The notes beneath the pieces were generated by a model that saw nothing but the letters and a program-made list of their open reading frames with translations, was not told where the DNA came from and made no database searches. Shown one piece after another: positions 7,774 to 40,675 of a stretch of 64,000 nt of DNA. Source of the stretch: Isoetes taiwanensis (Eukaryota; Streptophyta; Lycopodiopsida; Isoetales; Isoetaceae); contig JAJEKV010000010.1 of NCBI GenBank assembly GCA_021234155.1, positions 15,097,329-15,161,328 on the forward strand, given 5' to 3'. Both the position numbers and the translations under genes were made by a program. Position 1 is the first letter of the stretch. Each line of letters begins with the position of its first letter.

Positions 7774-7849
7774 CTCCCCCACCAAACGACACACCAGAGT
7801 GAAGAAAAGGAGGAAGCGCCGGAGGGCGGGAAGCCATCACCTCAAAGTG

Positions 7850-9800: not shown

Positions 9801-9826
9801 GGCCATAAGAGCCGCCTTGGGATTCC

Positions 9827-11440: not shown

Positions 11441-11459
11441 GATGGAGGTGGTTCTCACC

Positions 11460-11760: not shown

Positions 11761-12860
11761 CATTAACTAATGTAGGTAATGGAGTGCCATCTAATTCAAA
11801 TGAAGTTGGAAAACACTTGGTCTAACCACTTGAACAATTTGATAAGGGCCAAGCCAACGAAACTTGAGTTTACCCTAAAATTTTTGTACCGAATCATAAA
11901 GAAGAACCAAATCTCCTTGTTTGAATGTTTTTTGTCTTCAAACGCTTGTCATGTAAAGATTTTTGCAACTGTTGTCCATGAAGAACACGAATATAAGCAT
12001 CCCTTCGAAGTTCATCCAACCGTTTCTAATTGATAGACCCGCTCTTTGAGAGCAAATGGTGGATTATGAGCAAAGAGCTGTTGAAACCGAGTGTTGGAAG
12101 AATGAATTCAAAGGGCATGAGAGCTTCCTCGACCATAAACCAATTTAAAAGGAGTGTGACCCGTAGCAATCTTGAAACAAGTATTGTAGGCCCAAAGAAC
12201 AAGAGGGAAGTTTTGTCTGCCAACTGCAAGGGAAGCGCCACAAATTTTTCTTGAGAATGGTGACCGAGTTTTGTTGGTGCTTTCTCGCCAACCCATTGCC
12301 TTGAGGATAGTAAGGTGTGCTCTTGTGATGATGGATCAAGAGATAATCCGTCGCCTCTTTGATAGTATGATTGATGAAATGAACACCACCTGGCCACCGA
12401 CCAGCCCGTAGGGCAGCCAATCGCGATAATTTGTTGATAGAGGACTCGAGCCGTGCTTGGCCAGCAGTTGTTGTCCGAAGTGCACAAGCTTCCGCCCATT
12501 TGGTGGCGTGGTCGGAGAACCGTAATGTATCGGCACGAGTGTGCCGCCAGAGGGTCTATAGGTCCCACAAAGTCCATTCCCCATTTGGCCGAAGGGAAGT
12601 GGCGCATGCACCGGCCAAGGGAAGAGCCGCCACGGGTCGGGGCCCCACCCGCCGGCAAGCCACACACGGCGGGCGTATGAGCATCTTTGAAGAGCGTGGC
12701 CAATAATACCCCCAAGAAGAAGAATTTTATGCGTCGCGGGTGTCACCATGAAAATGACCACCACCGAGCCCTTGATGAGCTTCAACAATGTCCGAACTTC
12801 ATGAGGTAGAACACGCCGGGCGATGGTGTCCTTACCCTTTTTGTAGAGATGTCCCAAGCA
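11760..12860 (-). pseudogene. N integrase (broken)
   Basis: The pieces match C integrase: WGMDFVGPIDP with the first Asp near 12585, RESTNKT with the catalytic Glu near 12270, and then FKIATGHTPFKLVYG. The zinc-binding N-terminal region is at about 12860-12700. Integrase joins element cDNA to host DNA. At least four frameshifts interrupt it, so this copy would not make the enzyme as read. Confidence 0.75.
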
Positions 12861-12899
12861 ACCATGGTGTAGTCACGACCTCGCGGAGAAATTGATGGC

Positions 12900-14620
12900 G
12901 ACGGGGATTGTCGCCATGGTGAGAGAGCCGCCTCATCTTCTCGTGGAAGAGCACCGAGAGGAGGTACCGCTGAAAATCATGGAACCAATGTGGTGTTGCC
13001 GACTAAAAAGAGTTGAGCATCCCGAAAGGCATCCCGAGACCCCGCTGCGTGATCATCGCTGTGGATGCGGAAAGATAATCCGAACAACATGAGATTTGCC
13101 TCGCCTTCCGAACGATTTCAAAAGGAGCAAATTTTGGAGAAGAAGGACCCAACGAAAGCAATGCGCCCGTGGGCGGGATTTGTTGATCAAATAGAGAAGT
13201 GCTTGGTGGTCCACAAAGAACTTGATTTGACTGCCTAAAAGGTAATGACGGAGCGCTGGACACGTAAAATGAGACCCAAAGCTTCACGCCCGTGGCGTAA
13301 TAGTTGCGCCGCAGAATTGAGTTTTCTACCGGGCGAAGCGAATTGGTTTATCGCTGTGCGATCATATTCTTGAGAAAGAACAGCTCCAATAGCAAACGCC
13401 GACATCGACATGAACGCGGAAAGGGCTTGTCCCATTGAGGAGGAACAAGAACCGTGCCCGAGTAAGCAAAAGCTTCAATTGTTGGAAAGCAAAATTACCG
13501 GGAATTCCAAGCCCGTGTGGATTCGCCACCGTGAGTTTATGAATGGGATCCGCAATGGCCGCCACCCGTGTATGAAGGTGGAGTAATAATTGACCTTCCC
13601 GTGAAAGAGCGCGTCTCTTTTGATGTTGGCTGGTGCTTGAGCTTTGAGCACAATAACCGATTTTGGCGTGATCGCTGGTGATTCCTGCTTTCTCGACAAC
13701 ATGGCCTAACGTAACACCGGCGTGACGCAAAAGGTGCATTTCTCGTGATTGAGACTAATGCCTTACTCATCACATTTCGGAAGACGAAGTTCCAATTTAT
13801 CCAAATGGTCAGCCATGGAACTATAGGCGAGAAAGTCATCTTGAAAAATTTGCAAGAAGGGATTTTCCTTCATGAAATCATGAAAAACCGAGCATGATGC
13901 GCTGAAATGTGGAAGGAGAGTTGGATAATCCAAAAGGAACCACCTTGTAGGCAAAAAGTGCCCCCACGGGTGGTGAAAGTGGTCTTGAGTTGATCGATTC
14001 TTTGATGGAGATCCGATTGTAGCCGAGAAACCATCCATAAAGGAGTACATCTCATGTCCAGCCACTTCTTCCGTGAACTTGGTCTCGTGGAAGGGAAGTG
14101 GAAAATGATCACGCCCGTGGCCCCATTGAGTTTCCGATAGTCTACACGACGCCGATCTTACCATTGTGCTTAAGGGCAATGACGATAGGGCTCACCCATT
14201 CGTAATGTTTGACCTCATAGATCAAACCCGCAGCAAGGAGTTTGTCAATTTCCGCCTTGGACGCGATCACGGTAATTAGGGTTGAGCCTGTATCGCCGCT
14301 GCTACACCGGGTCGCGTGCATCGATTTGGTAGGAATGGTGAGTTCCCCAAGCTTTTGTTGATTCCCCAAGATCTTTGTAACCTGTGCTAAAAATGTGTTT
14401 GAATTTTTTGAACAGCCGTGGACGGCCCTTTGACGATAAGGAGCCGGAAGGTTTGCGGCAAGAATGCGACAAAGTTGATTGTTGCCAACATCCACGATCT
14501 CAACTTCGAGTCCAATATGAGGTATGACTTCAAAGATCCCGGACAATGTGTGCGTGGAGGTTGGAGCATAACCGATGCGTGGCACTTTGGTGGTGAAAAG
14601 AGAGGTTGCTCGGGCCATCT
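12900..14620 (-). pseudogene. N reverse transcriptase and RNase H (broken)
   Basis: Reverse transcriptase runs from about 14620 to 13500. The catalytic loop reads FQDDFLAYSS at about 13850-13820, a variant of the YxDD box with both Asp residues present. RNase H follows (DVGVC/FAIGAVLSQEYD region near 13420-13370, ending with the YLS...TD part near 13060). An in-frame TAG followed by CAG lies at 14304-14299, in exactly the place where C also has TAG CAA. Several frameshifts are present. Confidence 0.75.
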
Positions 14621-14946
14621 AGCGTTGGTTGCTTCATGACGCTGCAGGTACATCGCCAGAGTTGCGGAGTGTCCGTGACCGAAAAGTGATCAACGCTGTT
14701 GGATTCGATTGCAAGGAGCCGTGTAGAGGTCAAGCAAGGCAGCCACCGGGGTCCCGATCAAGAGTCATTTCTCCCAAGGATCGCGATATTCGGGGTAGGA
14801 GGACAGGCGACGCTGCTAGGGTAGCCTGAACTTGATAAATATTCTCGAAGCGCCTTCAGAATCGGTTCCGAGAGAGGGTTCCGCATTGTCAACGGAAATG
14901 ATCCCCGCCTCGCTTGCAAGTCCATGGTGGCATTGAGATGACCATC

Positions 14947-15290
14947 TCAGATGACTAACCGGGTCCGCGGGCCCAAGAATGGATACTCTTTGCCCAAGCG
15001 AGAAAGGGTCTTCCCACCAAAGATTTCATAGTCACCGGATCTTCGCCAGCCTTTCCAAACTCCAAATTCCATGGGAAAGCGGAGATCTCCAATGTTGATG
15101 TGAAGAATAGGTGTGACGCCTTGAGGTCTCGTGGATATGGCCATTAGCCAATTTGATGTCATATGGGGCAACGAAAGAGTTGTGTGATGCCCATTTGTTT
15201 TGCGGAGTTTATCCGTGATGAGATTGACCGCACTACCTCCATCGATTTGAACATGGTTGACTTGTCGATTTCCCACCGCTGCATGGACCG
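14947..15290 (-). pseudogene. N aspartic protease
   Basis: The frame contains NHVQIDGGSAVNLITDKL, where IDGGS is the active-site loop, followed by GDLRFPMEFGVWK. It aligns along its length with the protease of C at 39905-40215. It would cut the Gag-Pol polyprotein. The flap and C-terminal glycine-rich part (GGKTLSRLG) are frameshifted relative to C. Confidence 0.7.
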
Positions 15291-15329
15291 CGGGTGTAGA
15301 GGTAGCCACCCCCAACTAAAACAACAGCT

Positions 15330-17600
15330 TGGGAGTGGTAACCGGTCCTTGAGAGCGTGACAGAAGTTGTAAAATGGTAGCCAAGCTTAAAGGAATTTTG
15401 ATCTTGGCAAGCTCCTCTTGGAGTTCGAGAGGTACATGAGAAAAAGGATCTGCTTCGGTTCCACCAAAGCGGGAGTGCGTGGCGTGGAAGCGAAACTTTT
15501 TTGAGTAAGTCAACCTCGGCTGCAATATTGGGATATGTCTGAGAGCGTGGAGGTTGAGATGTTGAAGGTGTATCTTGTCTTTGTTGAGCTCTAGTGGTGG
15601 CATGAACATTTGCCAATGTGCGGCCTTCAGCAGCTTGCATGAGATTCAAAATGCTTTGGCGAACTTTGGGCATGACATTTGGCATGAGCTTTTCTAAGTC
15701 AGGTGCAAAGTGAACCTTTTTTTCGTCCTCATGAGGAAGGGTGTCAACCGCAAAGGCGGGGTTCGGTCCTTCCGAATAATAGTCAAGGGGCGTGATGCCT
15801 TGGTGCGGCGTGAAACTAGACCAACCCAATTTGACTACCGCATGGGAGGATTGAGTGCCCAAAAATTTCCTCTTGGGCTTGTTGATCCAAACGAGGTTGA
15901 TTTGCCGGAGCTGGTTGATAGCGTGATTGCTTTGGGGCGCTTTGGGGCTTTTAAGAACTGGTCGCGGGCCTTGTTTGCCATTAGCTAGCCAGAGTTGGTA
16001 AGCCGTGAGGCGGACCGATGTGGTCTGATTGGTACCAGGAAGCTGTACCTGAACCTGTGGAAGTTGAGGACACGCCGTGGTGGTATGACCCCATTCTTGA
16101 CAGTGATAACACTGAGCTTTAGAAGGATCAAAAGGAGGTCGTTGGTTGGATCCCCGTGGTTGGTCCCCGCTGTCGATAGAGTTGCGTGGGCTGCACCTGA
16201 AGAGGTGGCTGCTGATAGTGCGATTGTGGCTGAGGTGTGGTTTGCACTTGATAAACCATTTTGTTGCGGAACGGTGTGGGATGAGTGCGAGTGCACTCTT
16301 CCGTGGCATGATTGCACATGTTGCATCGCTTGCAATGAGGCGGGCCATTGGTGGAGTTGCACTCATTGGCCAAATGGCCTTGATATTTGCAAATATGGCA
16401 CCGATTTGATCACCTACTGGATTAGCGTGTTGAGGCCAAACAAACCGCTTGTGGAACCATGACGGGGGTGGAATGAACGGGAGCTCTTGAAGAGCCACGC
16501 CTCGGGAGGAAACATTGACGGAGTGATTGACAAGGTCGATAGCCTGCTCCAAAGTTTTTGGACGCAGGTATTCAGTCATGAGTCGAATAGCGGGAGGAAG
16601 TCCTTGGAGAAACCGGCACCAAAATGCGGCTCTCGTAGGGTACTCCTTGAGCTTATCGGAGCGAATGTGAAGTCGATCCGCAAAAATCCCTGCGGACTCC
16701 GTGGGCTCTTGTTGAAGTTCATTGAGTTGCTTGAGATGAAGTTGATCATCATCCGTGGGTCCCAGAATGAGACGTAAAAGCAAAGCGGTCGCATTTCGGA
16801 CCATCTTTGTTTCCAATGGCTTTTGTTGGACATGAGCCATTGATGAGGAGAGCCACGCAAAGGTGGTGGAAAAAGATGTGAAATTTCAGTTGAGGTTGCG
16901 CGTGCCCATTTAGGACAGCTAGAGCCTCAAATTCTTCCATGTGGGCCGAGCACTTTGGTCTAGCGGTTTGCCTTTCGTGTTGCCAAAGGTGGGATAAGTC
17001 GGGCCAGAGTCCCGAAAGGTAGATGTGAAAGTGCCGGGCTGGACAGAAACGGGATAGTGAGGATATTGAGGTTGAGGTGGATTTGGCATTGTGCCCACTT
17101 GACCCCGATGAAGGGGTGATCATGGTTGAGAAACCGGCAGCCGAGCATTGGTTTTAGATCCGTAAGGTTGTAAACAGAAGAGCAAAGGGGAAACGTAGGG
17201 AAAGGATATTCCGGCAGGCGCAAAGGAGACATGTGGATAGCCATGCCCACCCGGGGAGATGATGGTTATGGGCGAAGAGGCGATGGCCTTCAAGAATGAT
17301 GGATGTAGGCATGTTCGGGGGTATGAAAGTACGGTTGAGAAGGTTGAGCCTGATAAGGCTCCCCGATAGTGATGAGGGGACCGAGGTTGTGAGCAATGTT
17401 TGCACGCTTTGGGGCGGGAACCGGACGCAGATCGACACGAGGGGTGGGTGGCGCCGACCGAGCCCTAGACCAAGATGGCCGCCTCTATGTCATAAGGTGA
17501 TCCATACATGTCGCTGGGTCAGGTTTCGACGCCGATGGCGCCCAAGCGAGATGCCGCTCGAGAAAGGAGTTCTTCCGGGCGGAAATTACTTTACGCATTA
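15330..17600 (-). pseudogene. N gag (capsid and nucleocapsid)
   Basis: The gag core has AHMEEFEALAVLNGHAQ near 16940, then LRPKTLEQAIDLVNHSVNV near 16560-16510. Further on is a CxxC...H-type cluster (NECNSTNGPPHCKRCNMC) and a CCHC zinc knuckle, CYHCQEWGHTTTAC, near 16120-16080. After this comes FDPSKAQ-type linker and KVHFAPDLEKLMPNVMPKV near 15720-15660. Gag packages element RNA. A 535-codon frame survives at 16840-15236 but mixes true and shifted frames. Confidence 0.75.
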
Positions 17601-17649
17601 TGGCGGCGAGAAGAAAGTAGGAGAAAATCAGACCCGATCGGGCGCTGTT

Positions 17650-18221
17650 TGTTTGGGTCCGGGTTCGGGAACTCGAAGACAGACCCTCCGTGAGGACCCG
17701 TGGATCTAACAGAGAGTCCGGGGACTATGTCACGCCGGGATTTGCTGAAAGAGAAGAAAAGGAAGAGAACAGAACAAATGAGAGAAAGATGATAAGCTTC
17801 CTTGATATCAATGATGAAAATACATGAGCTCTCGCAATAGAGAGAAAAACCGGTGAGACAAGACTCAAAACTCATCTAAAAACTTATGAGCTAACTCTAC
17901 TCATATATATAGTACAATGGCCTTGGGCCCAATATAGACACTCGACCGATCTCTCGTGCCGACTCACGGAAGGAGGCCCGATTTGGAGGAATGTTGGCGG
18001 TGCCTCTTGAAGTGCCTAGAATCACGACGACGCTGGCGGTGACGGGCAGCCACTTATCCGAGGCGGCTTCTTGGATGTTCAAAAGGCTTTGATCGCGCTG
18101 GCCCGCTTAGTCTTCGTGGGAGGCTTGGATGTCCTGACCCGTGGTTGACTGAGGATCTTTGAGCTTGACCTGGTCTGACGTATGCATGAATAGTCCTGTA
18201 CCAGGAGGCACAGGACTAACA
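17650..18221 (-). mobile_element. 5' LTR of N
   Basis: 572 bp, nearly identical to 7197-7773. The minus-strand TATA box is the CATATATATAGTAC segment at about 17902-17915. Inside it (17649 leftward) the minus strand reads ACAGCGCCCGATCGGGTCTG, the degraded counterpart of the Asp-type primer site of C. Confidence 0.9.
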
Positions 18222-18226
18222 CTAAG

Positions 18227-18738
18227 GATGTAATTCTCCCAGCGAAGTTCGGATGCGGTTTACTGCTGAGGCAGCCAAAACAGAAGTTCTAAAGCCCCCA
18301 AAATCGAAAATTGGGCTAGTTAGGGTTTCCTACCCTATATAGACAAGGGAGTTGGCTAGGGTTTCCAATTATCCCCTTTTGGCATGTGGGATAATTGGAA
18401 ATGGGCCCACTTGCCTTTAAGGGCTAGGTGGCCAAATGTGCACACATGGAAATGTGTGCCCACATTAATGTGTACATTGGAAAATGTGCACATTAATTGC
18501 ACCTATGGGTGTGGCCCACTTGGCATGAAGTGTCCACTTGGAAATGTGTGCCCACATTAATGTGTACATTGGAAAATGTGCACATTAATAGTTGCACATA
18601 TTTCTGGCAAGTTGCCCCCTAGGGCTACTCACTGCTACACGCTTAGCGTAGCGCATACACGCCACCGGAGGGGTGGTAATGCTGACGAGGCAAAGATGCG
18701 GTATACGCCCCGGGCGATATCGTTGGCCGAACGCCACA
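18227..18738 (-). mobile_element. B left LTR, second part
   Basis: This continues exactly where 7196 stopped and ends AACGCCACA at 18738, followed by a minus-strand polypurine tract (GGTGGGGAGAA) at 18739-18749. It contains a direct repeat of about 50 bp with period 92 (18449 and 18541, starting GAAATGTGTGCCCACATTAA) that is also present in the right LTR. Confidence 0.9.
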
Positions 18739-18749
18739 TTCTCCCCACC

Positions 18750-19610
18750 TTGAATTGATGTCGCCCGCGGCAAAGATCGGGGTTTCCCCACCTTGGGATC
18801 AACCCCGACCCGCAACAACTTGATACATCACGATGGCTACTATAATTCCTACACATTTATTAAAATTACCTTAAGGTAATATTTTTATGACATTATCACA
18901 TTGTTGTATTATAACATAACTTATCAATTCACAACATTACTAACAGATTACTCCAAAATTCACTTAACATTACAATTAAGTTCATCAAAATTTAGAATTA
19001 ACGTCCCGAGGTACTCTTCATTCCTTGCAACACATTCCAACAAAATTTGTGTTGCAAGTCTTCAGAGTCTTACCCTCCTTGCCCTCCCGAGCGCTCTCTT
19101 GGCTGCTCGGGTCGACACTACGTTAGTACCATTTAGTTATTAAATAAAATTTTGGTTATATGGTGACCACCCCACCTATCTACATGGATGCATGGCTAAT
19201 CTCCTACAGTAGGGAAGAGGTGAATCTTCCATTATGGCGCCGCTGAGACAAATACTATATGCCTATATGCGGCTCATGCCTACACCTCTAGTTGCCCAAC
19301 GTGGAGGATATCCTTCTCGCGTGGGGGCTGGCGGATAGATTCCTCCTATCAAAGCATATATGGGGCTAAAGGTGCTTTCCCTATCAATGCATTCCTTCAT
19401 GACCTCCTTTCTCTAGGGTCGCCTACTTAGCGGGACGTAAGTAGACTTTCTAATCTACCTTCCACTCTCCCAAGCGGAAACGCGGTCATGCCTACATTGA
19501 CATTATACCACGCCCTAGAGATCACCGTAGTGGTCCCATCATCGGTAACAACGCATGCGACCCATACTAAGCATAGGTTGCATGCGTAGATTAATCTTAC
19601 TAGACAAGAA
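18750..19610 (-). mobile_element. B internal 3' untranslated region
   Basis: Sequence between the polypurine tract and the end of pol. It has blocks in common with A1 at 3507-4208. No reading frame of interest was found. Confidence 0.5.
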
Positions 19611-19615
19611 TTAAC

Positions 19616-20966
19616 CTACACAAATCGACATGCCTGAGCCGATTTCTTCTGAGATGACCTTGCCGTCCCCATTGCTCCATAAACCGTGGATACTTGCTTT
19701 ACTAAATCTTTCTTAAGTACCCACGCCGCTTCTTCCACCGTAAGTGTTTCCACTTGACCAAATATTGGAGGAATTTCGATCTCCTCGTTTTTTCTTGAAA
19801 GCTTTATCAAGAATCAATTCGAACTATCTCCACCGCTCCTCCGCCATTTCCAACAACGTTGGCGAATCCAAGACTTCATCCGGATTTGGGTATGCTTCTT
19901 CAACAAACTCACGTGGAAGACCTTATGAATCTTTTAGGTGTGCTTTGGCAAATCTAGCTTGTAGGATTGATTACCTACTCTCTTGACTATTCCGAAGGTC
20001 CAAATTTCACCTTGGAGCAAGCTTCTTGCAATTGCCGATCCCGAAGCTTCTTTCCGCTTCACCTTGATCTTGAGCCAAACATCATCTCCAACTTTGAACT
20101 CTCTTATCGCTTTTGATGCCCGCCTTCGGCGATGCTCTTCGACGACTTTTGCTGCTAGCGTATAACCTCGAACTTCTTCCACAAGCCGCCGTGCATATCG
20201 GCCAACATCTGCCGCGAAACTTCCACTTTTGACACGGGGTTGTGCCAAGTATCCGAGTTAGGCAATCGATAGCCGTAATTGATCATAAATCGGCGACATT
20301 TGGGATGATTCCCGCTTGGTGCTATTGTATGCGTAACTCCACCAAGTGAATAAATTCTTCCCACATACTTTGCTTATTCCGATATAGTTTCGTAGCATGT
20401 CCTCTAAAATCCCTGCTGGTCCGCTCCCGTCCGGGCCATCCGTCGAGGATGGTATGCCGCGGGGTCATGGATAGCTTCGCCTGAATTGTCGCAAAGAGGT
20501 CTTGCCAAAGGCGCCATGAACTTCGGATCCCTCGGGAGATGATCTCCCTTGGCATGCCATGAAGCCCCAAGATCTCTTTGGTGAAGAGCTTTGTTTGATC
20601 CATAGTCAGATCAGGTCCCGCAAGGCACAAAATGTGCCATCTTAGACAACTTGTCGACCACTACCATCAAGGCATCCTTCCCTCTTGCCGCCCTTTGGAA
20701 GTCCCGTGATGAAGTCCATGCCGACACCTCCCACTTAGCGTTTGGCACCGCTAATGGCTCTAATGCCCCCGAATTGGTGCCGCTTTCGCTTCGCCTGGCA
20801 TAGCTGACATTCCTTGATATAGCGAGCTATTTGCTTCTTCATTCCTCGGGTAATAATAGCTGCCACCTTGAAATATGTTTTCATGAATCCCGCGATGGCC
20901 AGCTATTGGGTCAAGCAGCGTGTCATGGAGGATCAACTTCCTTACACCGATGATTCGCACGCACAA
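19616..20966 (-). pseudogene. B integrase with chromodomain (frameshifted)
   Basis: Read right to left, this shows the zinc-binding end with DPIAGHRGIHENI near 20910, then core pieces 20630-20322 (LHGMPREIIS; PGRERTSRDFRGH holding the catalytic Glu that A1 has lost). The C-terminal domain at 20248-19934 (VGDDVWLKIK; KRVGNQSYKLDLP) and a chromodomain-like tail (VEEAAWVLKKDL) near 19700 follow. The chromodomain is thought to steer integration to modified histones. Small indels break the frame about every 200-300 bp. Confidence 0.78.
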
Positions 20967-21000
20967 CTTGTTCTTATGGTATAACAGGTTGCCTTCCTTC

Positions 21001-22446
21001 TTATAATGCTTGAAGGCCTCCCGCTTTTTCCTCTGTTCTAGCCTCCTTAGAAAGGCTTGCCCATACTTCCCTCGAAATCCACATCCGCTGGCAAGGACTC
21101 TTCAATCCTCTTACCAAAATCGCCGGATATCGCCGAAATTGCGCTGTAATGCACTCTAGTTGCGGGGGATGCCTTGAAAGCGCATCCGCTACCACATTGA
21201 GCTTCCCCGCTTGTAGACTATATTAAAGTCGTGACTCTTCAAGGAACTCCATCCACCTTCTGCCTCGAGGTTGAGGTGTGGTTGCGGAATACATATTGAG
21301 GCTCGTGGTGCAGATCCAACCGAAACTTCCTTCCCAAAAGGTAGTGCCTCCATATTCTTAATGCCCCGACAACCGCAATTCCTCGATGCGCGTGGGGTAG
21401 CGCCTGCCTCGCGCCGCTCATCTTCCCCGAATCATACGCTACCACACGCTCTTCTTTGCATAAGCACCGCACTGTAGCTATCTTACCGCTGATGCTGTTG
21501 CTACAAGCTTATCTTTCCCGTCCCAAGGTTAAGACTGGGCTGTTGTTAAAGCTTCCTTCAACAATTCAAACCCTTGGGGCTTTCTTGTGCCAATGCTCTG
21601 CCCAATCTTTCACTTTCTCACTTCCAGCGTCAAGTCCATTAAGCGGGGCTGCTATCTTGGCAAAGTTCTTTACTGAACTTCCCCTCAGAGTACCCCCGCT
21701 AGGGCGAGGAAACTTCTGACCTCGTGCATTCTTCGGCGCCGGCCACCGAATGACGGCTTCAATCTTTGCGGGGATCCGCCGAGATGCCTTCTCGCTGAGA
21801 TCACGCGGACCAAGGTATTCCACCTTCTTCAGGCGGCGGCACTGGCGCCAACTTGGCGCATAACCGTGCCTCTTCAACTTCTAGCACTCTTCTCAAGGGT
21901 TGTACGTGCTCTTTCAAGGGATCTGCTATACACCAAAATGTCATCAAAGAAAACAATCACAAAGGTGTCCAGAACTCCTCGAAGATATCGCTCATGAGCC
22001 TCATGAACGTTATGGGGGCATTTGATAAGCCGAAAAGGCATTACCGTGAACTCATAATGCCCATACCGCGTTCCTGCAAGGCGGTCTTATGGATATCTTC
22101 TTCCTTTATCCCGATCGATGATAACCCGACCTTAAGTCGATTTTTTGAGAAGATCTTTGCACCTTGAAGCTGATCCATCAAGTCGCCCCGATCTTGGAAG
22201 CGCATACTTGTTCTTAATGGTGTGCTTGTTCAACCGCCTATAGTCTATGCACATCCTTAGACTGCCATCCTTCTTCTTAACAAAGAGAATGGGCGCCCAA
22301 ATGGCGTAAACACTAGGTCTAATAAAACCTAGGTCAAGCAGCTCCCGCAAATCGCTTTTTAGTCTCGGCCACAATTCCTGCGTTGTCATTCTATATGGAG
22401 CCTTGCTCGCTGGCTTTGTTCCCGGTTCGAAAGTGCAATCTCGCAC
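21001..22446 (-). pseudogene. B reverse transcriptase and RNase H (frameshifted)
   Basis: Reverse transcriptase includes [18 protein letters not shown] near 22290-22235 and a catalytic loop FFDDILVYS around 21960-21930 with both Asp residues intact. The thumb lies at 21877-21566, and RNase H follows (RIWRHYLLGRKF near 21350; VADALSRHP at 21195). Order and motifs are those of a plant chromovirus pol. Frameshifts separate the pieces but the key residues I can see are conserved. Confidence 0.8.
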
Positions 22447-22739
22447 TCAACTCCCCTATATGGAGGGAGCCGCTTGATCTCATCTCGAAAGAGATCATGG
22501 AACTCCGCGGATCGCCTTAGCTACTTGCTTCGCAACTTGTCGAGCACCTTGTCTTCTTTGCTTCCTTCCCATTCGCTCACTAATCTCAAGCTTGAAGATG
22601 TATGCCACTTGCTCACTCTTGATGCACTTGAACAGTACCGCTTAGAAGACATACACCGCATGATGGGAACAACTTCCTTACACTGCTATCTCAATGATCT
22701 TGCCGTCGGGCGTTGGGAAGGTCACCTTCCGCTTCCCAC

Positions 22740-23080
22740 AACCGATAATGGCCCCTCGCTGGCCCAAGGTACTCCATTCCTATGATCAAGTCATACTTGC
22801 CAATGCCCATTACCCCCTATCCGGATATTAATGCCCGCAAGTCGATGTCGGTTAATTCTCTTGCCCGGCCGTCCTTTTATCGCACCACTTGCTAAAACAA
22901 CGGGTCTTGGTTTTGACTTTAGCGGCTTCAACTTCAACATCCGGAACCATTCCCGGGGATGCAGTTATGGCTACTTCCCGAAGTCTATCAAGACTATGAA
23001 GGACTTAGCCTTGGCCTTCCCTACCGTGGAAATTACCTTATACCGCTCTCTCTGTTCGTATCTATTAAGCAAAGATATGA
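22740..23080 (-). pseudogene. B aspartic protease
   Basis: The minus strand reads KAKSFIVLIDFGK near 23040-22975, with the Asp of the active site. Further on is a GIGKYDLIIGMEYLGPARGA segment near 22815-22755, equivalent to the LGxYDVILGMDWL motif of gypsy proteases. The frame shifts once or twice between the two. Confidence 0.65.
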
Positions 23081-23084
23081 CACT

Positions 23085-24430
23085 CACCCCAATGTAGTCG
23101 CTGGCCTCTTCGCCACCGCCGTCCGACAAGCAAGGCCCCAATCTCCCAACTCCGCTAGAGCCGCACTCATGACGAGGGGGCAGCTTTGTCGCCCCATGGC
23201 CCGGCCGAAGCACCTGGCACAACCGCTTATGCACTCCTGCCTCTTTTCCTTGGGCATTGCCCGCAAAAGGATCGCGACCGCTTTGGAGTAGTTTGACCCT
23301 CCTCGCTTGTCCTTGAAGGACACCGCTTTTCTCCCGGCCGCTTCCCCGGTTCCCACCATATGGGGATCTAGCCGACTGGATCTGCCGCCTCGGCTATAGC
23401 TTCGTCGCCTTTGCCTTTATCCCGAAGTACCACCGCCGCTCGCTATTCTCGAGGTCCCGACCCCCGCAAGCTTATAGCCTTGGATTCCGCTTCGAGCATC
23501 TTGTCCTAGGGTTTATTGCCCTCACAAGCTTAAGTGATCTCCTCATTCAAATTTCAATATAGCTTTCTCGCATGCTTTCTCCCAACTTCGGCACGCATGT
23601 TCTTTAGCCTCATGAATTCCTCTCAGATATTTCTGACTGATTTGTTGCCTTGCCGCAACCTTTAAAACTGCCGTGATCATCTTTGGACTTATGTTCCCTT
23701 GGGACGTAATGGCGCTTGAAGGCTTTTGCAAACTTCTTGAACTTACAAGCATCCCCGCTCAAGCCGCGGTGCCTTTGCATAACCCTTCCACCAAATCCGT
23801 GCGGCTCCTTTCAAGTTGGCCGTTGCAACTCGGGCTTTGTCTTTATCTTTCATGGTATAAGCGTTTAGGTATTTCCGCCATTTCGTCCAGCCATGCCTCT
23901 TCCAATCCCGACTGTTTCTCCCCGAGAACTGCTCCAGCTTCGCCTTCCATACATTGCCCAAAGGTCGAATCTACCTTCTTCTCGTAGTCGAGGCCCCGGT
24001 GTCTCTTTTGTCGCCCATCCGGGTGTTCCTCCGCCTTCCATCCGTTCGTTCTCGAGCCTCGTTCTTCCTCTTCCTCGGCTCTGAGTCTGAAGTCCGAGCT
24101 TGAGCCGGAAGATTCGGGCTGGAGGATCTCCTTCTCTTGCTCCTCTTCTTGTCTTTTTCCCCCCTCGAAGCGATGCTTGCGGCAACCGAAGTTGCGTGCC
24201 CACCGACCCACTCACGCTTGCGACAAGTAATGCCTTTTATCCGCTCCGTCCCGTCCTCATCCGGGCTATCTCCTCCTCCTCGGGGTCATGGGTTCCATAT
24301 CTTCAAATAGGTTCCTTGCGGGGTGGTCCGGGTGGGGTTTGCTCTTCTATAAGATCTCGCAGCTTGTCGTTCCCCGCGTTTAGGCCTCTAGCTGCATCCA
24401 CAAGCAATTCATGGCTATATGATTAGTTTC
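23085..24430 (-). pseudogene. B gag
   Basis: Fragments at 24211-23843 (acidic and basic N-terminal part), 23961-23743 (KDKARVATANLKGAARIWWK, the conserved core helix of plant gypsy Gag) and 23752-23543. A damaged CCHC region near 23260-23170 (GCARCFGRAMGRQSCP in one frame, PGHGAT in another) follows. The start is probably close to 24430. Gag is separated from the element's 5' LTR by more than 4 kb of additional genes. Confidence 0.65.
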
Positions 24431-24570
24431 ATTTGTTCTCTTGCATTATTTATGTTTGTTGGTATAGTTGTGGGGCAAAAATACATCAACAAAGTATTTA
24501 AAGTGCAATAAGATTTATATTCATATATCATATAATATTTCGATACAAAAAGTCTCCCCGGATCAAGAGT

Positions 24571-26110
24571 TTAACTAGTCTTGAAATCACCGGTAAGACG
24601 ACGGATTGTCTTCAAGAAACTTCTTAACTTGGGCCGTCCCCTACCGAAAGTGACCCAAGTTCCCCGATGATGCTTGCCGACGAAGCCTCCCCTCAGTATG
24701 GCCCCCACCAGGGTCTTCTACCCCGCGGTCGGATGTAAGGGCCGCAGATCATCGCCAATCTCGGCCCGACGCCGGTGGGGTATGGCGAAGTCGAAGAGGT
24801 CAAGTGCCATTGCCCTCTTGACTAAGACAGCATAGTCGACATTTGTTGCTATTCGAGCATGCCTGCCGAAGCCTGAGAGTGCAATCAGCATGAACACTCC
24901 TTCTTCGCCTCTGACTGAACTTGCGGTGAATTACCGCTATTCTCCCATCCATCAGCAGCGGCAAGTAGTACCGAGCGACCTATCGTGTAGTGTCGCCATC
25001 GCTTTGTTTCTCCTCATTTTGTTTGGCCTCCCCGGGCGTGCTACATCTGACCTCAATTTCAGTCAGCTCCATGTAGTCTTCCATTGTGCGGTCGAGCCTC
25101 CTGAGGTCGATTCCTTCTCCTTTTGGCAGGGGTGATATCGGAGGACTCGGCATTAGGATGCTCGTGGTCTTCCCACGGATCCCCATCTGCTCTTGGAGGC
25201 GAGGAACTCCTCCTCTGGTGGCGACTCCCGCCGGTCCATCATTTGCCTTATCTTCAGAGGGCCTCGATATCGGAGGTCGCCTCCCCGCAATAGGTGTCGG
25301 CCTCCCTCACTTGCGCCGGTGCCCCGAGGCTCCCCGACGATGAAGTCGTCCATGTCGGTTTGTCGCAGCTTGGTGGAGCGATTCGTCCAACCCGAGCTCC
25401 CCTCCCCTCGTGATTCGGAAGGTTCTCGATGTCGCTGAGGAGTAGATACTCCTCTCCGTTAATGATGATCGGGCTAGGCTTGTGATGCCTAGCCCGGAGT
25501 GGGGAGCGACTTCGATGCCCCCGGGCCGCTCTGCTCGGAAGTTGATCAGGCCTCGCTCGCTTTGGCGCCGTTCTTCGCCCTTGAGTCGAAGCTCCGTATC
25601 CTTTCGCCGTCCGGCTCCTCTTCTTCATCCTCTTGCTTCCCTGCTTCCTCGTTGATACCGCAAATAAAGATACGCTCTTCCTCCCGCGACTGCTATGGGG
25701 TCTACCTCCATCGGAGGGATAGAGGCTGCCCCCATCTGCTTCCTCGGCGGTGGGATAAGAAGATGGCTAGGGCGGCGGTGTAAGAGAAGTACTTGGTCCC
25801 GCTGGCGCCGTGACCATGTAGTCGGTAGCCTTTGCCCTTGTTAGTCAAGTACTTGGCGATGTTGGGGACATCGCCCAAGGCCGCTTGAAGAGATGGGCGG
25901 GGACGAAGTATCCTATGCAAGGGGACTTGAACAAGGGAGGGTCCTACCCTAGCCTGAAATTCTCGCTAGCACCGCCTATATGTTTGGGGTTGCATTCAGC
26001 CAGAGCTTGATGTCGATTTCCTTCACAAAGACTTGAAGATGTCGCTGACATCCGCCCAAGAAAGATGGGCACCGGGCGCCGTACCATCGCCCAAAATCAG
26101 CCGGGGCCAT
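24571..26110 (-). pseudogene. Histone-fold-like module 1 of B (H2B-then-H2A-like, tentative)
   Basis: An ORF region starts at ATG 26110, about 110 bp below a TATA box, and ends at a stop near 24589 or 24571. Fragments recall H2B first: DIFKSL...KEIDI near 26040-25995 (compare YIFKVLKQVHPDIG), and RPSLQ...ASGTKYFSYT near 25890-25760 (compare KPTITS...SEGTKAVTKFTS). A polar, acidic linker of roughly 250 residues follows. Next come H2A-like pieces: GRIA near 24945, then AIPHRRRAEIGDDLRPL at about 24790-24735 (compare [20 protein letters not shown]) and LVGAILRGG near 24705 (compare the H2A docking segment). The frame is broken several times. Each match is weak alone; the order and the neighbouring H3 make histone ancestry plausible. 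Otherwise it is an unknown protein. Confidence 0.4.
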
Positions 26111-26223
26111 TGATCTAGCAAGGAAGGGAGTATCGACGGATGCGTAAGCCTCTGTGGAGCTGAAAAGATCGCCTAAGCAAAGGGGGGAGCAAATTTGCGG
26201 TGGTGCCAAATGAGAAATGGGGA

Positions 26224-26234
26224 CTTATTTATAG
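26224..26234 (-). promoter_or_regulatory. TATA box of module 1
   Basis: The minus strand reads CTATAAATAAG, a consensus plant TATA box, 114 bp upstream of the first ATG (26110) and downstream of two palindromes. Module 2 has the same arrangement, which argues against chance. Confidence 0.6.
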
Positions 26235-26411
26235 AAAAGGGGAAACCCTAATTTTTGGGTGGCCTAGAATTTATCAAAATTAGGCAATTCTCGACCTATT
26301 AAGGGATGCAATTGCAAGTTTGAAGACTATTTCTAGAGTTTGAGCATGCTAAGACTCACTCATCGAACTTATCGTACAACTTGGAGATCATTTGGTGAAG
26401 AATTAGGTTTA

Positions 26412-26472
26412 GGTCTCATCGCTTCCAGCCCGATTTCTAAAATGTAGAAATCATTCCGGCCGACGGTGAGAC
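26412..26472 (-). repeat. Palindromic element, module 1 copy 1
   Basis: On the plus strand: GTCTCATCGC, then GATTTCTAAAATGTAGAAATC, then CGACGGTGAGAC. The outer arms (GTCTCA/TGAGAC) and the inner arms (GATTTCTA/TAGAAATC) pair, giving an imperfect hairpin of about 60 bp. It is one of four related copies in B. Confidence 0.75.
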
Positions 26473-26603
26473 ATGGGTCCCATTGGGCTAGGATTACTCA
26501 ATTTAGGTGATCTAAGGCTGTAATTCCACTAAACTCATCGAAGTTAGGCGCAATTGACCCCTTACTTGGTCGATTTGGAGCTGTTTTGGGCATTTTGGGC
26601 ATG

Positions 26604-26670
26604 GTCTCACACGCTGCGCCCAAACATTTCTAAAATGTAGAAATTTGTCCCGCGCGACGACGTGTGAGAC
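26604..26670 (-). repeat. Palindromic element, module 1 copy 2
   Basis: GTCTCACACGCTGCGCCC pairs with the CGCGCGACGACGTGTGAGAC arm around a core of ATTTCTAAAATGTAGAAAT. It lies 132 bp from copy 1, almost the same spacing as the two copies of module 2 (127 bp). Confidence 0.75.
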
Positions 26671-26814
26671 ATCGTCTCAATTTTGCTCAAAGCTCCAATT
26701 TACTTAAAACAAAAGCTAGGGATCGATATCTTGACCTATTTAAACGGGGTTTGAGACTTTATTTACACAAAATTTTCTTTATATTAACAAAATTTTTCCG
26801 CTTATTTACAAAAC

Positions 26815-28112
26815 TCAAGGGCGTTCACCCTTGATGTGCCCGGCAAGATACATATCCCGCCTCATGAGGGTAACCCTCTTCGCGGCACCGTGCGTGCCGT
26901 TGAATCTTCAAAATGCTTTACTATGTGTGCTTCGCCGCCGCCTTTTGTAAACACAAGAAAGATCTCGCCGGTCACGCCGCATGTCCCTGTTGTATTCTTG
27001 TATGACTTCTCGGACCAAACGCTGAACGGGCGCCGGGGATCAGGAGTCCAGTAACTCTTTCCGAAGTGGCGGATCTCCTTGAGTGCCCCCGCTTCCAAAC
27101 TTCTTTTTTTGCTCCGCTTCTTCCCCGGGTGCTCGGGAGGCTTGGGTTTTGGTGGAGGGGGCTTGATTAATGCGGCTCTTCGTCGGTGTCCGCCTTCAAT
27201 CGTTCTCACACCCTGTTCCCGGTAATATCGTTTGTACGCCCCACCTTGCCATATAAGCTTTGTGTTCCCTAATCCTCTTCCATAGACCTTTAGGGGTCTA
27301 TCACATATGCTTCCCGCTGCGCCGCTGGGCTTTGACTCTATCCCACGCCGGAAAGGTGGGGCTTCGCTAGCTGTCCGGTCTCCTCCCCTTCTTGGGCTGT
27401 ATGCGCTCGGGACCTCTTCCTCCTCGACCGGGGCTTTGAAGAGCTTGCCCGCCTCAAGGCCGCACGTAATCTCCATCCGAAGTCGTTCGGTGGTGGGCGG
27501 GTCTCCCCCCGACGGCTCGTTGATGATCGGGACCTTCGCTCGCTTCAGGCCTTTACCGCCTTCCTCTTGCCCCGCCTTTACGGCTTTGGCCTCCTCTTCT
27601 TGGGTCCGGCCCCAGCCGTGAGTGGTCGTCTTCCCCGCTCTTTGTCCCTCTCCCCTTGCGGGCGCCCTTGGCCATTACTTAGACTGGCGACGCGTCGCGC
27701 GAGGTCGGCCTCTTCTTCCTGGTGAGTTCCGGTGCTGCCGCTCCTCTCTTCCCCGCTCCTCCTCGGGTGGACTCGGCAGGGTTGCTCACGGGACGTTGAT
27801 GGGTCCCCGCTTTGTTCCCTCTGCTCTTCCCCGCGGGTTGGCGCCCTCCCCGGTATTTGCTCCCGCCACTTTGCCCACTTCTTTTCCTCTTCCGCGCAAT
27901 TTCGCCGAGGATCCGGTTCATGACGCCTGGCCGGCCATCCCTCCAAGAGCTCTCAGGTGGTCCGACCACCACTTCCCTCGGCCGACGAAGATTGGCCGTG
28001 GAGAAGGCGTTCCCGGCTAATCCCGGGTGTGAAAGAAGGGCCTGATTTACCGGGCGCTGGAGGATCCGCTTCGGCTAGGCTTCCTTGCAGTCTGCTTTGT
28101 GCGGGCCATCAT
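26815..28112 (-). pseudogene. Histone H3-like gene carried by chromovirus B
   Basis: Translation from 28112 (or 28109) gives M(M)ARTKQTARK, the first nine residues of histone H3 including Lys4 and Lys9. A basic, Pro- and Glu-rich insert of roughly 330 codons follows (PPPPKPKPPEHPGKKRSKKR near 27150). Then the H3 core appears in order: ALKEIRHFGKS (about 27087; H3 ALREIRRYQKS), QRLVREVIQEYNRDMR (about 27025-26980; H3 QRLVREIAQDFKTDLR), EAHIVKHFEDS (about 26935; H3 EAYLVGLFEDT) and KRVTLMRRDMYLA...KGERP with stop at 26817-26815 (H3 KRVTIMPKDIQLA...RGERA). Canonical H3 is about 135 residues; this is near 430. Frames shift at least four times, so as read it is broken, but B shows such small indels everywhere. 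Family identity is secure; function is unknown. Confidence 0.88.
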
Positions 28113-28210
28113 CTTACGGTTTGTCGATCGGAGCTAAGCGCCAGGAGATCGCCTTGACAGTCACGAGCGAAGTTCTAGGGAAGAACAGGAAAAATGGGAG
28201 GGGTCCGGGT

Positions 28211-28220
28211 CTATTTATAG
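28211..28220 (-). promoter_or_regulatory. TATA box of the H3-like module
   Basis: The minus strand reads CTATAAATAG, 99 bp upstream of the first ATG. This is a strong plant TATA consensus inside the element body, separate from the promoter in the LTR (minus-strand CTATATAGGG at about 30027-30036). It suggests the gene could be transcribed independently. Confidence 0.6.
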
Positions 28221-28294
28221 GGCCAATTTTAGGTCAACTTTTAAACTACCTTTTTGGGTTGTCTAGAGCACCTAAAAACACCTAATTAAGCAAG

Positions 28295-28361
28295 GTCTCA
28301 CACGTTGCGCCCAGCCCGATTCCTAGAATCTAGAAACCTGTCCTGGCGCGACGTGTGAGAC
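28295..28361 (-). repeat. Palindromic element, module 2 copy 1
   Basis: GTCTCACACGTTGCGCC pairs with GGCGCGACGTGTGAGAC (16 of 17 positions) around a core containing TCCTAGAATCTAGAAA. This is the best hairpin of the four. It lies 75 bp upstream of the TATA box. Confidence 0.8.
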
Positions 28362-28487
28362 ATGGTGGGGCCCACTATTAAATTAACATGTATCATGCTA
28401 AATCTACTAATTCTTAGCTTAAAATTAGAGTTATCAAGGTATTTTACTGTAATTTACAACTTTTTTTTTTTTGGTGTCAATGTTAAT

Positions 28488-28556
28488 GTCTCATCGCCGC
28501 TACCAAAATTCGGATTTCTAGAATGTAGAAATCATTCCGGCGCCGACGTGTGAGAC
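28488..28556 (-). repeat. Palindromic element, module 2 copy 2
   Basis: GTCTCATCGCCGC, core GATTTCTAGAATGTAGAAATC, then GGCGCCGACGTGTGAGAC. It resembles module 1 copy 1 in the left arm and core, and module 2 copy 1 in the right arm. Confidence 0.75.
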
Positions 28557-28743
28557 CACCCTACTTTTGATGTTGGCTCATCGATTTTAGTCTTTTTACG
28601 CTTTCTATTCATTTTAACTCAAGTACTAGCTTAGCATAAACTACAAAAATGAGAAAAAATTTCTCATTTTTCGAGGTTTTGAGGATCCTATCAAGTTAGT
28701 GCTACGGGAATGGGCTGCTTTGCTCTTGGTCTCCAAGAACATA

Positions 28744-28755
28744 GCTCTGATACCA
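28744..28755 (-). other. Primer binding site of B (initiator tRNA-Met)
   Basis: The minus strand reads TGGTATCAGAGC, a perfect complement to the 3' end of plant initiator tRNA-Met, four bases inside the 5' LTR. This fixes the orientation of B and shows that the histone-like modules lie inside the element, between primer site and gag. Confidence 0.93.
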
Positions 28756-28759
28756 ATCG

Positions 28760-30421
28760 TGGACGCCCCCTTCTACTATGATACGGTGCACTCACCGTAT
28801 ACAAACAGGAGTTCATCCCCATACCAGCTCCATGCTAATACAGGGGCCCTCCACATGACACCGCAAACCGTGACGGGTTCCAAAGTGGGAAGAGTGGAAG
28901 GGTCATTGCACCCCGCCTCCCCTCGGGCCTACCTAGTCAGCGGAAGCGTAAAACATACATGTCAAGAGCACATACATCAACATCATATGACCATCACGGG
29001 CGATGGTCCTCCACATATCTGCATAGACAAAGGTCAAGATCAGACATAGGAAATCCTACCCAAGGCTCGGACTCAAGGGATGACTGACGGCCTGGTCTCC
29101 GTGAGTTCATTGCGCATGTAATTCATGGCAATGGATTTGGCTGGCATATGAACATAGCTTAGGGTTGTCCACTCCATCCGCCCCTCCCATTGCACACTTT
29201 GCGAGTGGGTCCAAAAAGTGTCGGGACTGGATCAGAAGCCCACGGGATGCATAGCCAAGAGGGCTACTCCCGGGCTCATCTTCCCGCCCGGGGGGCGTAG
29301 GGATCACTCCCTCCGAGATCTACATGCTGACTCAAGGTGGCTAGAGGGCCACCGCCTGCATTCGACCAACCCACCGGAAGGTGAACACCACCCCACGGGT
29401 GTCGAGCCCATGCCTTGCCCGCGCGCAGCTGGCAAGCCATTGGACCTAGCCACAGTGGTTCCCCCTAGGGCCTTACACACCGAGGAACCGCTTCATGAGT
29501 CGACAAGAACCTCCTTCTCGCCCGCCCGGCCCTTCACCCACATCCCTGTGGCTCTTGCGCCACGTGCCGAATCTACAAGCAGCTAGCGAGGATACTCTAG
29601 GAGCATCAACTACAAAGCTTTAGGTCTCTACCCCCTTCCCAATACAAGGAGCTCATAGAGATGCATCATCCATATACTTCACGAGAGAACTAAAGAACTA
29701 GATCTAATCTACAACATAGAGTTAGGTTCTTTAGTTAGGATCTGCTATCTAGAGATCTAGAGGGCTGCTATGGGCAATCTAATAGGCTAAACCCCACTCA
29801 TTTAATGACTAAAATAGGGTTTAGACTATCTAATTGGCCAAATACCTGATCCTTGAGGGGCTCCTCCCCGACTGAGCTCTCGACCATCCCGCCGAGACGC
29901 CGAATCAAGGGAAACTAAGGATGTAATTCTCCCAGCAGAAGTTCGATGCGGTTTTTGGCCGCTGAGGCAGCCAAAACAGAGTTCTAAAGCCCTAAAATCG
30001 AAAATTGGGCTAGTTAGGGTTTCCTACCCTATATAGACAAGGGAGTTGGCTAGGGTTTCCAATTATCCCCTTGGCATGTGGGATAATTGGAAATGGGCCC
30101 ACTTGCCTTTAAGGGCTAGGTGGCCAAATGTGCACACATGGAAATGTGCCCACATTAATGTGTACATTGGAAAATGTGCACATTAATTGCACCTATGGGT
30201 GTGGCCCACTTGGCATGAAGTGTCCACTTGGAAATGTGTGCCCACATTAATGTGTACATTGGAAAATGTGCACATTAATAGTTGCACATATTTCTGGCAA
30301 GTTGCCCCCTAGGGCTACTCACCTGGCTACACGCTAGCGTACACGCCACCGAGTGGCGGTACGCTGCGACGCAGGCAAGACGGTATACGCCCCGGGCGAT
30401 ATACTATGCTGGAACGTCACA
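28760..30421 (-). mobile_element. 5' LTR of B
   Basis: 1662 bp, ending GGAACGTCACA at 30421 and beginning TGGACG at 28760 (TGTGACG in the other copy). It holds the uninterrupted N target site near 29920. The minus-strand TATA box is at about 30027-30036. The 92-bp-period direct repeat is at about 30140-30280. Confidence 0.92.
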
Positions 30422-30426
30422 CACCC
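30422..30426. repeat. Target-site duplication of B, right copy (CACCC)
   Basis: Second copy of the CACCC at 6021-6025. C gag continues directly after it. Confidence 0.9.
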
Positions 30427-40670: not shown

Positions 40671-40675
40671 AGTGG

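What the first reader, a model, noticed from the sequence alone, without database searches (positions are those of the whole stretch)
26815..28112. Chromovirus B carries a histone H3-like gene with an intact ARTKQTARK tail and a giant insert
Seen: on the minus strand the ORF opens M(M)ARTKQTARK, and downstream, in order, lie ALKEIRHFGKS, QRLVREVIQEYNRDMR, EAHIVKHFEDS and KRVTLMRRDMYLA...KGERP-stop. These line up with successive helices of H3, and the stop falls where H3 ends. Known: those nine N-terminal residues, with Lys4 and Lys9, are the most regulated histone tail, and chromovirus integrases target chromatin through a chromodomain. Inference: an element that reads histone marks also carries its own H3, stretched by about 330 codons between tail and fold. 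It might alter nucleosomes at element copies, package element nucleic acid, or act as a decoy for tail-modifying enzymes.
Basis: partly seen in the sequence, partly recalled or inferred. Interest (0 to 1): 0.96.

Follow-up and report, generated by a model that had tools for sequence, protein, structure and literature searches.

The report
Histone H3-like gene inside a retrotransposon
What looks like a recently inserted plant jumping gene carries, ahead of its own virus-like genes, a gene for a stretched histone H3 with the famous regulatory tail intact, so a mobile element may be making its own piece of the protein spool that packages its host's DNA.

Summary
The H3-like gene is real. On the minus strand at 28112-26815 lie an exact ARTKQTARK tail, 331 codons of basic low-complexity sequence, and a complete H3 fold. 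A frameshift-aware alignment gives 44 of 88 identities to plant H3 (score 148; 420 other chunks of the window reach 39). The frame is broken here, but the element's reverse transcriptase has frame changes at a similar density, and its LTRs differ mainly in clustered, indel-rich patches. I infer assembly error rather than decay. The host element has paired TG..CA LTRs, TSD CACCC, tRNA-Met-type PBS, PPT, RT, integrase and a possible chromodomain; gag was not shown. The H3 gene lies in sense between PBS and pol, with its own TATA box and AATAAA. Residues kept from H3 concentrate where H3 and CenH3 agree (p=0.0002), which suggests constraint; a neutral-decay simulation of the score did not discriminate. 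H3 or CenH3 class stays open. Fungal hAT transposons carry an H3 with tail insertions, and a separate 114-protein family shares the tail-insert-fold plan, so I call it a new variant of a known kind. No other copy of the element could be reached; residence, expression and function are untested.

The parts
6026..30421 (-). Whole host element ('B'), a Ty3-type LTR retrotransposon with a second LTR element (N1, 7197-18221) nested in its 3' LTR
   Evidence: LTR pair, 5-bp TSD CACCC at 6021-6025 and 30422-30426, PBS and PPT in place
28760..30421 (-). 5' LTR of element B
   Evidence: aligned with the other LTR; TG..CA ends
6026..18738 (-). 3' LTR of element B, split by nested N1 (LTR pieces 6026-7196 and 18222-18738, the first 5 bases of the second being the N1 target duplication)
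7197..18221 (-). Nested LTR element N1 with its own LTR pair (about 7197-7775 and 17650-18221) and TSD CTAAG
28744..28755 (-). Primer binding site TGGTATCAGAGC (tRNA-Met type), 4 nt from the 5' LTR
   Evidence: tRNA-Met assignment recalled
28211..28220 (-). TATA box CTATAAATAG, 108 nt before the first ATG of the H3-like gene
   Evidence: promoter function inferred
26815..28112 (-). H3-like gene: tail, 331-codon insert, histone fold, stop (frame broken in this assembly)
28080..28106 (-). Exact H3 tail ARTKQTARK (Lys4 and Lys9 kept; the residue after Lys9 is Pro, not Ser)
   Evidence: tblastn with P0002, 10 of 10 residues identical
27087..28079 (-). Insert, G/R/P/A/K-rich, 21% K+R in the frame pieces counted, no family match
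26818..27086 (-). H3 histone fold, 44 of 88 residues identical to plant H3.1
26758..26763 (-). AATAAA 51 nt after the stop codon; longest A run within about 420 nt from the stop is 5
   Evidence: signal function inferred
21879..22287 (-). Reverse transcriptase, 101 of 135 residues identical to a plant-type RT yardstick, 7 frame changes
20623..20927 (-). Integrase zinc finger and start of core, 42 of 100 residues identical to a yardstick, 4 frame changes
19937..20257 (-). Integrase C-terminal SH3-like piece (PF24626, 27 bits, E 5e-6, just below cut-off 30)
19687..19820 (-). Possible chromodomain
   Evidence: moderate, yardsticks recalled
18739..18751 (-). Polypurine tract AAGGTGGGGAGAA next to the 3' LTR
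28290..28366 (-). Palindromic hairpin repeat upstream of the H3-like gene (another at about 28470-28570)
26599..26675 (-). Palindromic hairpin repeat downstream of the H3-like gene

Best explanation
A young Ty3-type, probably chromoviral, retrotransposon of a probable plant carries a captured histone H3-like gene as an accessory gene between its primer binding site and its pol region, in sense orientation. The product would be about 430 residues: the H3 tail with Lys4 and Lys9, a flexible basic linker of about 330 residues, and an H3 fold that has drifted to half identity with plant H3 while keeping its core. Gene content and order are shown; an open frame, residence in the family and translation are inferred. 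The most likely working is that the fold pairs with host H4 and docks in chromatin, while the tail on its long tether is offered to the cell's Lys4/Lys9 enzymes and readers. That would let the element mark chromatin where it sits or draw such factors, perhaps its own integrase, to a protein it owns (inferred, untested).
For: Element anatomy: TSD, LTR pair, PBS and PPT; RT and integrase. H3 fold score 148 against at most 39 in 420 other chunks. Constraint: of 53 positions where at least 2 of 3 CenH3 references agree with H3, 35 are kept, against 9 of 35 elsewhere (Fisher p 0.0002); 16 of 44 differences equal a CenH3 residue, permuted mean 5.3, p 0.0002. Young element: 3 isolated mismatches in 1714 LTR columns, other differences clustered and indel-rich. 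With the same frameshift penalty, frame changes are as dense in RT (7 in 409 nt) as in the H3 fold (5 in 266 nt), so the broken frame is probably an assembly artefact. The fold's divergence from H3 far exceeds LTR divergence, so it is probably older than this insertion. The strongest three-base periodicity of 100 windows (z 4.8) lies in the insert at 27600-27401. Precedent: hAT-borne H3 with tail insertions in a fungus.
Against: No second copy of the element could be examined, so residence in the family is unproven. The gene has its own TATA box and an in-sense AATAAA, which would tend to cut the element's genomic RNA short and fits a captured gene as well as an adapted one. No single open frame exists in this assembly. 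A neutral-decay simulation with frameshifts did not separate the alignment score from decay: of 164 simulated folds of similar identity (kept from 700), 102 scored at least 148 and 36 had no stop. A simpler simulation gave modest signals: 104, 53 and 291 of 3000 for conservative changes, substitution score and freedom from stops. Apart from the one window above, three-base periodicity was weak, pol included. LTR similarity could also reflect gene conversion. The residue where H3 has His113 is Ala, which may weaken the H3-H3' contact (recalled). No transcript data.
Confidence: 0.5

Rival explanations
1. Private passenger. A divergent host H3-like or CenH3-like gene, already long-tailed, was inserted recently into this one copy and has no role in the element.
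For: Own TATA box and AATAAA; palindromic hairpins lie on both sides; GC rises from 0.46 to 0.65 and falls to 0.44 across the segment; no other copy available.
Against: No poly(A) tract after the stop, against a LINE-type retrocopy; target duplications around the segment were not searched for. In-sense placement in the leader. No other H3 match in the window. It would need a host gene of unusual architecture as source.
Confidence: 0.3
2. Nucleic-acid packaging protein. The basic linker and histone fold coat element RNA or cDNA in the particle or pre-integration complex rather than entering nucleosomes.
For: Insert frame pieces are 21% K+R with 31% G+P+S; position upstream of pol in sense.
Against: Nothing here shows particle association; the intact 1-9 tail has no obvious use in a particle.
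Confidence: 0.1
3. Ordinary decaying H3 pseudogene captured long ago and drifting neutrally.
For: Frame broken; alignment score fits simulated neutral decay with indels (102 of 164).
Against: Kept residues follow H3/CenH3 conservation and substitutions resemble CenH3 (both p 0.0002). An old pseudogene in an element with near-identical LTRs would have had to transpose while already dead. RT of the same element shows similar frame damage.
Confidence: 0.08
4. Chance resemblance of low-complexity frames.
For: Single-frame pieces are individually weak.
Against: Score 148 against at most 39 elsewhere; exact nine-residue tail at a start codon upstream.
Confidence: 0.01

Closest known systems
H3L of hAT DNA transposons in the fungus Pyrenophora tritici-repentis (PMC3538342; passages; section on transduplication, part 1 of 2)
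   Same: Mobile element carrying an H3-like gene; all 26 copies have insertions in the N-terminal tail; the fold matches neither H3 nor CenH3 completely
   Different: hAT DNA transposon in a fungus; here an LTR retrotransposon, probably of a plant; insert here is 331 codons (size of the fungal insertions not seen)
hAT-amplified H3 in Pseudocercospora fijiensis and relatives (PMC6710886; abstract and one results section)
   Same: Histone H3 captured and amplified by a transposon
   Different: DNA transposon; copies inactivated by RIP; no long insert reported in what I read
Orchid Ty3/Gypsy elements with an AlkB-type RNA demethylase ORF (PMC9289625; passages and screen section)
   Same: Plant Ty3/Gypsy element with an extra ORF that could act on host regulation
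   Different: Different domain; of the 15 non-canonical domains counted, the section names nine and none is a histone
Unnamed family P0002-P0115: 114 proteins, 73 of them 380-453 aa; full-length members have a MARTKQTA tail, an insert of 285-354 aa and an H3 fold
   Same: Same plan: tail, giant insert, ALKEIRHF- or ALKDIRH-type fold start
   Different: Insert unrelated by profile (best E 2.3) and by shuffled-control alignment of P0001-P0004; P0002's fold is close to canonical H3; animal-like by a stem-loop peptide (inference); genomic setting unknown
Viral histones, e.g. bracovirus H4 (PMC5423620, start of abstract in listing; review PMC9145170, passages)
   Same: Parasite-encoded histone; [quoted passage not shown]
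   Different: DNA viruses, other histone; 'retrotranspos' and 'retrovir' occur 0 times in the review's main text

Membership tests
Ty3/Gypsy LTR retrotransposon | Paired LTRs with TG..CA ends and a target-site duplication | tested here: met
   LTRs 6026-7196+18222-18738 and 28760-30421, TSD CACCC on both sides
Ty3/Gypsy LTR retrotransposon | PBS and PPT at the inner LTR edges | tested here: met
Ty3/Gypsy LTR retrotransposon | RT followed by integrase | tested here: met
   RT 22287-21879, INT 20927-20623 against recalled yardsticks; RVT_1 E 2e-4 on one piece and SH3_Tf2-1 E 5e-6, both below Pfam cut-off
Ty3/Gypsy LTR retrotransposon | gag | tested here: inconclusive
   No Pfam gag match on the pieces tried between 24.3 and 23.5 kb
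Chromovirus | Chromodomain at the integrase C-terminus | tested here: inconclusive
   For two recalled chromodomain yardsticks the best two hits of 508 chunks fall at the homologous place in B and in a relative at 4.3 kb, scores 51-57, but next hits score 50-51; no Pfam match on one piece. Leans to met
Histone H3 | Complete histone fold with H3 as best match | tested here: met
   Pfam 66.7 bits on the read-through fold; the 60 shown of 174 PDB matches are H3
Histone H3 | Tail ARTKQTARK with Lys4 and Lys9 | tested here: met
Histone H3 | Continuous canonical tail of normal length | tested here: not met
   331 codons between Lys9 and the fold
Histone H3 | One open reading frame | tested here: not met
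   5 frame changes in the fold; probably assembly error
CenH3 | CenH3 as nearest match | tested here: inconclusive
   The 60 shown of 144 PDB matches are all H3 even with a CenH3-leaning reading; recalled plant CENH3 folds score 120 and 130 against 168 for H3.1; but P0001, CenH3-like by my reading, scores 189, and Cse4 is the best PDB match of the last piece
CenH3 | Longer loop 1 and R-x-T-x-E motif (recalled) | tested here: inconclusive
   VTGE follows RDMR in one frame near 26975, but loop length depends on where the frame changes
Fungal hAT-H3L | hAT transposase and TIRs | tested here: not met
   Host element has LTRs, RT and integrase; no hAT match on the pieces scanned
P0002 family | Homologous insert | tested here: not met

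The most novel reading that the evidence does not exclude
A plant chromovirus lineage maintains its own H3/CenH3-like histone under selection. The protein enters chromatin with host H4, and its tethered Lys4/Lys9 tail is the element's private mark or ligand. It could be a partner for its own chromodomain, or could seed centromere-like or silencing-proof chromatin at element copies. The interacting factor of a plant group II retrotransposon chromodomain is described as not found in PMC3350952 (passage read).
Probability: 0.17. Interest if true: 0.95.

Novelty: new variant of a known kind. Interest (0 to 1): 0.74.

Why it matters
If the gene belongs to the family, a retroelement would be writing nucleosome components as well as reading chromatin. 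That would be a direct element-side handle on silencing, and it would make the target of plant chromodomain integrases testable. Together with the fungal H3L and the separate 114-protein family, it also suggests a pattern: H3 genes amplified outside the canonical set gain an insert between tail and fold, in two of the three cases with residues 1-9 kept. The pattern can be tested with accurate genomes.

Tried and rejected
Other core histones in the same element: an H4-like score of 57 ending at 25195 was rejected. It covers only H4 residues 2-47, mostly the glycine/arginine-rich tail, and 300 shuffled H4 sequences reach 64 (mean 39.9). H2A's best score is 43; H2B's best is 51, at 49859 on the plus strand outside the element, not followed up.

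Intron between tail and fold: the segment is GC-rich and, on the minus strand, A-rich and T-poor, unlike plant introns (recalled). Not tested with transcripts.

Homology of the insert to those of P0001-P0004: the alignment does not exceed shuffles. The family insert profile has best E 2.3 in the whole window.

The first protein search with the 270-aa frame piece found none of 972 candidates at E<=0.001. The scan of viral contigs with P0002 gave 600 pattern hits and no relative. The tblastn of phage records found none. Three-base periodicity was weak except one window. Rfam scan at gathering thresholds: 0 matches. tRNA scan: 0.

CenH3 as a firm class was not adopted because the signals conflict.

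Full report
WHAT IS THERE. The pieces are in different frames, so single-frame searches are weak. Of six frame pieces only 26907-26821 gives a Pfam Histone match, below cut-off. Two pieces match PDB H3 or CenH3 chains at the matching H3 positions, best E 0.045 and 0.014; for the first, one unrelated protein scores E 0.085. A scan of the whole window, both strands, in 424 chunks found no second place: the 420 chunks set apart from the gene reach at most 39. The read-through fold scores 66.7 bits against Pfam Histone (cut-off 26.4) and E 3e-21 against PDB H3. Chance is excluded.

THE HOST ELEMENT. Self-comparison shows a tangle that resolves cleanly. A nested LTR element N1 (7197-18221, TSD CTAAG) sits in the left LTR of a larger minus-strand element B. 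Joining the two LTR pieces for comparison gives an LTR of about 1.68 kb that matches the right LTR 28760-30421, 1.66 kb. B starts TGTGACG at 6026 and ends CGTCACA at 30421, flanked on both sides by CACCC. Beside the 5' LTR is TGGTATCAGAGC (28755-28744), the tRNA-Met-type primer site of many plant elements (recalled; tRNA-Met PBS are also described for Selaginella elements in PMC3350952, passage). Beside the 3' LTR is AAGGTGGGGAGAA (18751-18739). Between them, in sense, lie RT (22287-21879, 101 of 135 residues like a recalled plant-type yardstick), integrase (20927-20623) and a possible chromodomain (19820-19687). A diverged relative lies at about 2-5.3 kb, 68-71% identical where it aligns, and its homologous region also scores as chromodomain-like. 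The chromodomain scores stand only slightly above the next hits. Gag could not be shown by profile. The H3-like gene lies between the PBS and this pol region, in sense. It has CTATAAATAG 108 nt before its first ATG and AATAAA 51 nt after its stop.

BROKEN FRAME OR NOISY ASSEMBLY. The two LTRs differ in 198 of 1714 aligned columns, but these fall into 56 clusters. The longest identical run is 178 columns, against at most 100 in 2000 shuffles. There are 3 isolated mismatches against 8 isolated single-base gaps, and differences sit in richer GC context (0.59 against 0.51). In a slightly different alignment, 65 of 122 LTR mismatches are transitions, little above parity, where methylated plant repeats usually show a strong transition excess (recalled). 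This is what a noisy assembly of a young insertion looks like; patchy gene conversion is another possibility. The RT of the same element gives an independent control: it keeps 75% identity to its yardstick with no stop in the aligned path, yet has 7 frame changes in 409 nt; the integrase stretch has 4 in 305 nt. The H3 fold has 5 in 266 nt at the same penalty. The H3-like fold is therefore about as damaged as the RT. I infer that the true frame may be open; only reads can show it. I made no attempt to mend it.

CONSTRAINT. If the fold were a drifting pseudogene, kept residues should not care which H3 positions are conserved. Against three CenH3 references (two recalled, plus P0001, CenH3-like by my reading), 35 of 53 positions where at least two agree with H3 are kept, against 9 of 35 others (p 0.0002). 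For 3-of-3 agreement it is 22 of 31 against 22 of 57 (p 0.003). Of 44 differences from H3, 16 equal a CenH3 residue, against a permuted mean of 5.3 (p 0.0002) (all). The reading path was chosen by alignment to H3.1, which may flatter these figures. Results against this reading: with simulated neutral decay plus 5 indels, of 164 sequences of similar identity (kept from 700) 102 scored as high as the observed one and 36 had no stop. A simpler simulation put the observed conservative changes at 104 of 3000, the substitution score at 53 of 3000 and stop-free at 291 of 3000. Three-base periodicity was weak in most of 100 windows, pol included; the single strongest window (z 4.8) lies in the insert at 27600-27401. 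I conclude constraint is likely, not proven.

H3 OR CENH3. The fold is mixed. The helix-1 part (QRLVRE) is H3-like. ALKEIRHF, RVTLMRRD and a VTGE motif after RDMR in one frame are CenH3-like (references partly recalled). The 60 shown PDB matches of 174 and of 144 (CenH3-leaning reading) are all H3, while Cse4 is the best match of the last piece alone. In frameshift-aware scoring, P0001 189 and P0002 183 exceed plant H3.1 168, maize CENH3 130 and Arabidopsis CENH3 120. The residue before AKRVT is Ala, where H3 has His113, a dimer-interface residue (recalled).

A PARALLEL FAMILY. A search with the read-through protein, scored on the fold, returned 5 proteins among 447 candidates. Four are 422-438 aa with a long stretch before the fold, and three of these begin MARTKQTA. 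Searching with the insert of P0002 returned 114 proteins (only the 8000 candidates sharing most words were scored). Of these 114, 73 are 380-453 aa, 81 begin MARTKQTA and 74 carry ARTKQTARK in the first 15 residues. Of all 115 proteins held, 54 met my full-length filter, and in the 49 whose fold start was recognised the insert runs 285-354 aa. Four of 115 (P0047, P0061, P0097, P0111) contain RSFSGPP near their ends, which is what the animal histone 3' stem-loop would encode in one frame (inference, recalled motif). The insert is not related to the window's by profile or shuffled control. So this is the same plan, not shown to be the same family. The fungal hAT H3L also has tail insertions in all 26 copies and matches neither H3 nor CenH3 completely (PMC3538342). 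Three cases, not shown to be related, thus share an inserted tail.

HOW IT MAY WORK. Shown: gene content, order, tail and fold. Supported: constraint at the level above. Inferred: an open frame, translation, pairing with H4, chromatin docking, and use of the tethered tail as mark, decoy or ligand. Plant group II chromodomains lack some methyl-cage residues, and the interacting factor of the one tested was not found (PMC3350952, passages). An element-owned H3-like partner is therefore a specific, testable idea, not a result.

IS IT KNOWN. The listings of searches showed no histone gene in an LTR retrotransposon. A 2026 review of plant TE gene capture contains the word histone nowhere in its main text (PMC13317346). 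The 121-genome screen of extra domains in angiosperm LTR elements names nine of its 15 domains in the section read, none a histone (PMC9289625). The library holds open-licence papers only. I rate it a new variant of a known kind.

LIMITS. A plant is inferred from the PBS and the neighbouring Ty3-type proteins (recalled). The genome search tool did not complete, and no other copy of the element was seen.

Noticed in passing
P0002-P0115 (proteins, not in the window): A family of 114 listed proteins, 73 of them 380-453 aa, with a MARTKQTA start in 81, a 285-354 aa insert in the 49 measured and an H3 fold, some truncated or frameshifted; four contain a peptide that looks like the translated animal histone 3' stem-loop. 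Organism and mobility unknown.
   Followed up: partly
26599-26675, 28290-28366, about 28470-28570: Three copies of a ~75-bp imperfect palindrome (GTCTCACACGTCG...), strong hairpins, two before and one after the H3-like gene; may mark how the segment arrived.
   Followed up: partly
6026-7196 with 18222-18738 against 28760-30421: LTR differences are clustered and indel-rich, a sign of an uncorrected long-read assembly; broken frames in this window should be read with that in mind.
   Followed up: yes
7197-18221: Nested LTR element with TSD CTAAG inside the LTR of element B.
   Followed up: partly
24.4-26.6 kb: About 2 kb between the H3-like gene and the pol side with K/R-rich frame pieces (e.g. 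25766-25254); no Pfam match on the three pieces scanned.
   Followed up: partly
1979-5349: Diverged relative of element B (about 68-71% identical where it aligns), with a chromodomain-like stretch at 4.3 kb.
   Followed up: partly
11811-15263 against 39903-43378: Two inverted copies of another Ty3-type element, 78% identical over 3.5 kb.
   Followed up: no
49859 (+): Best H2B-like frameshift-aware score of the window (51), outside the element; may be chance.
   Followed up: no
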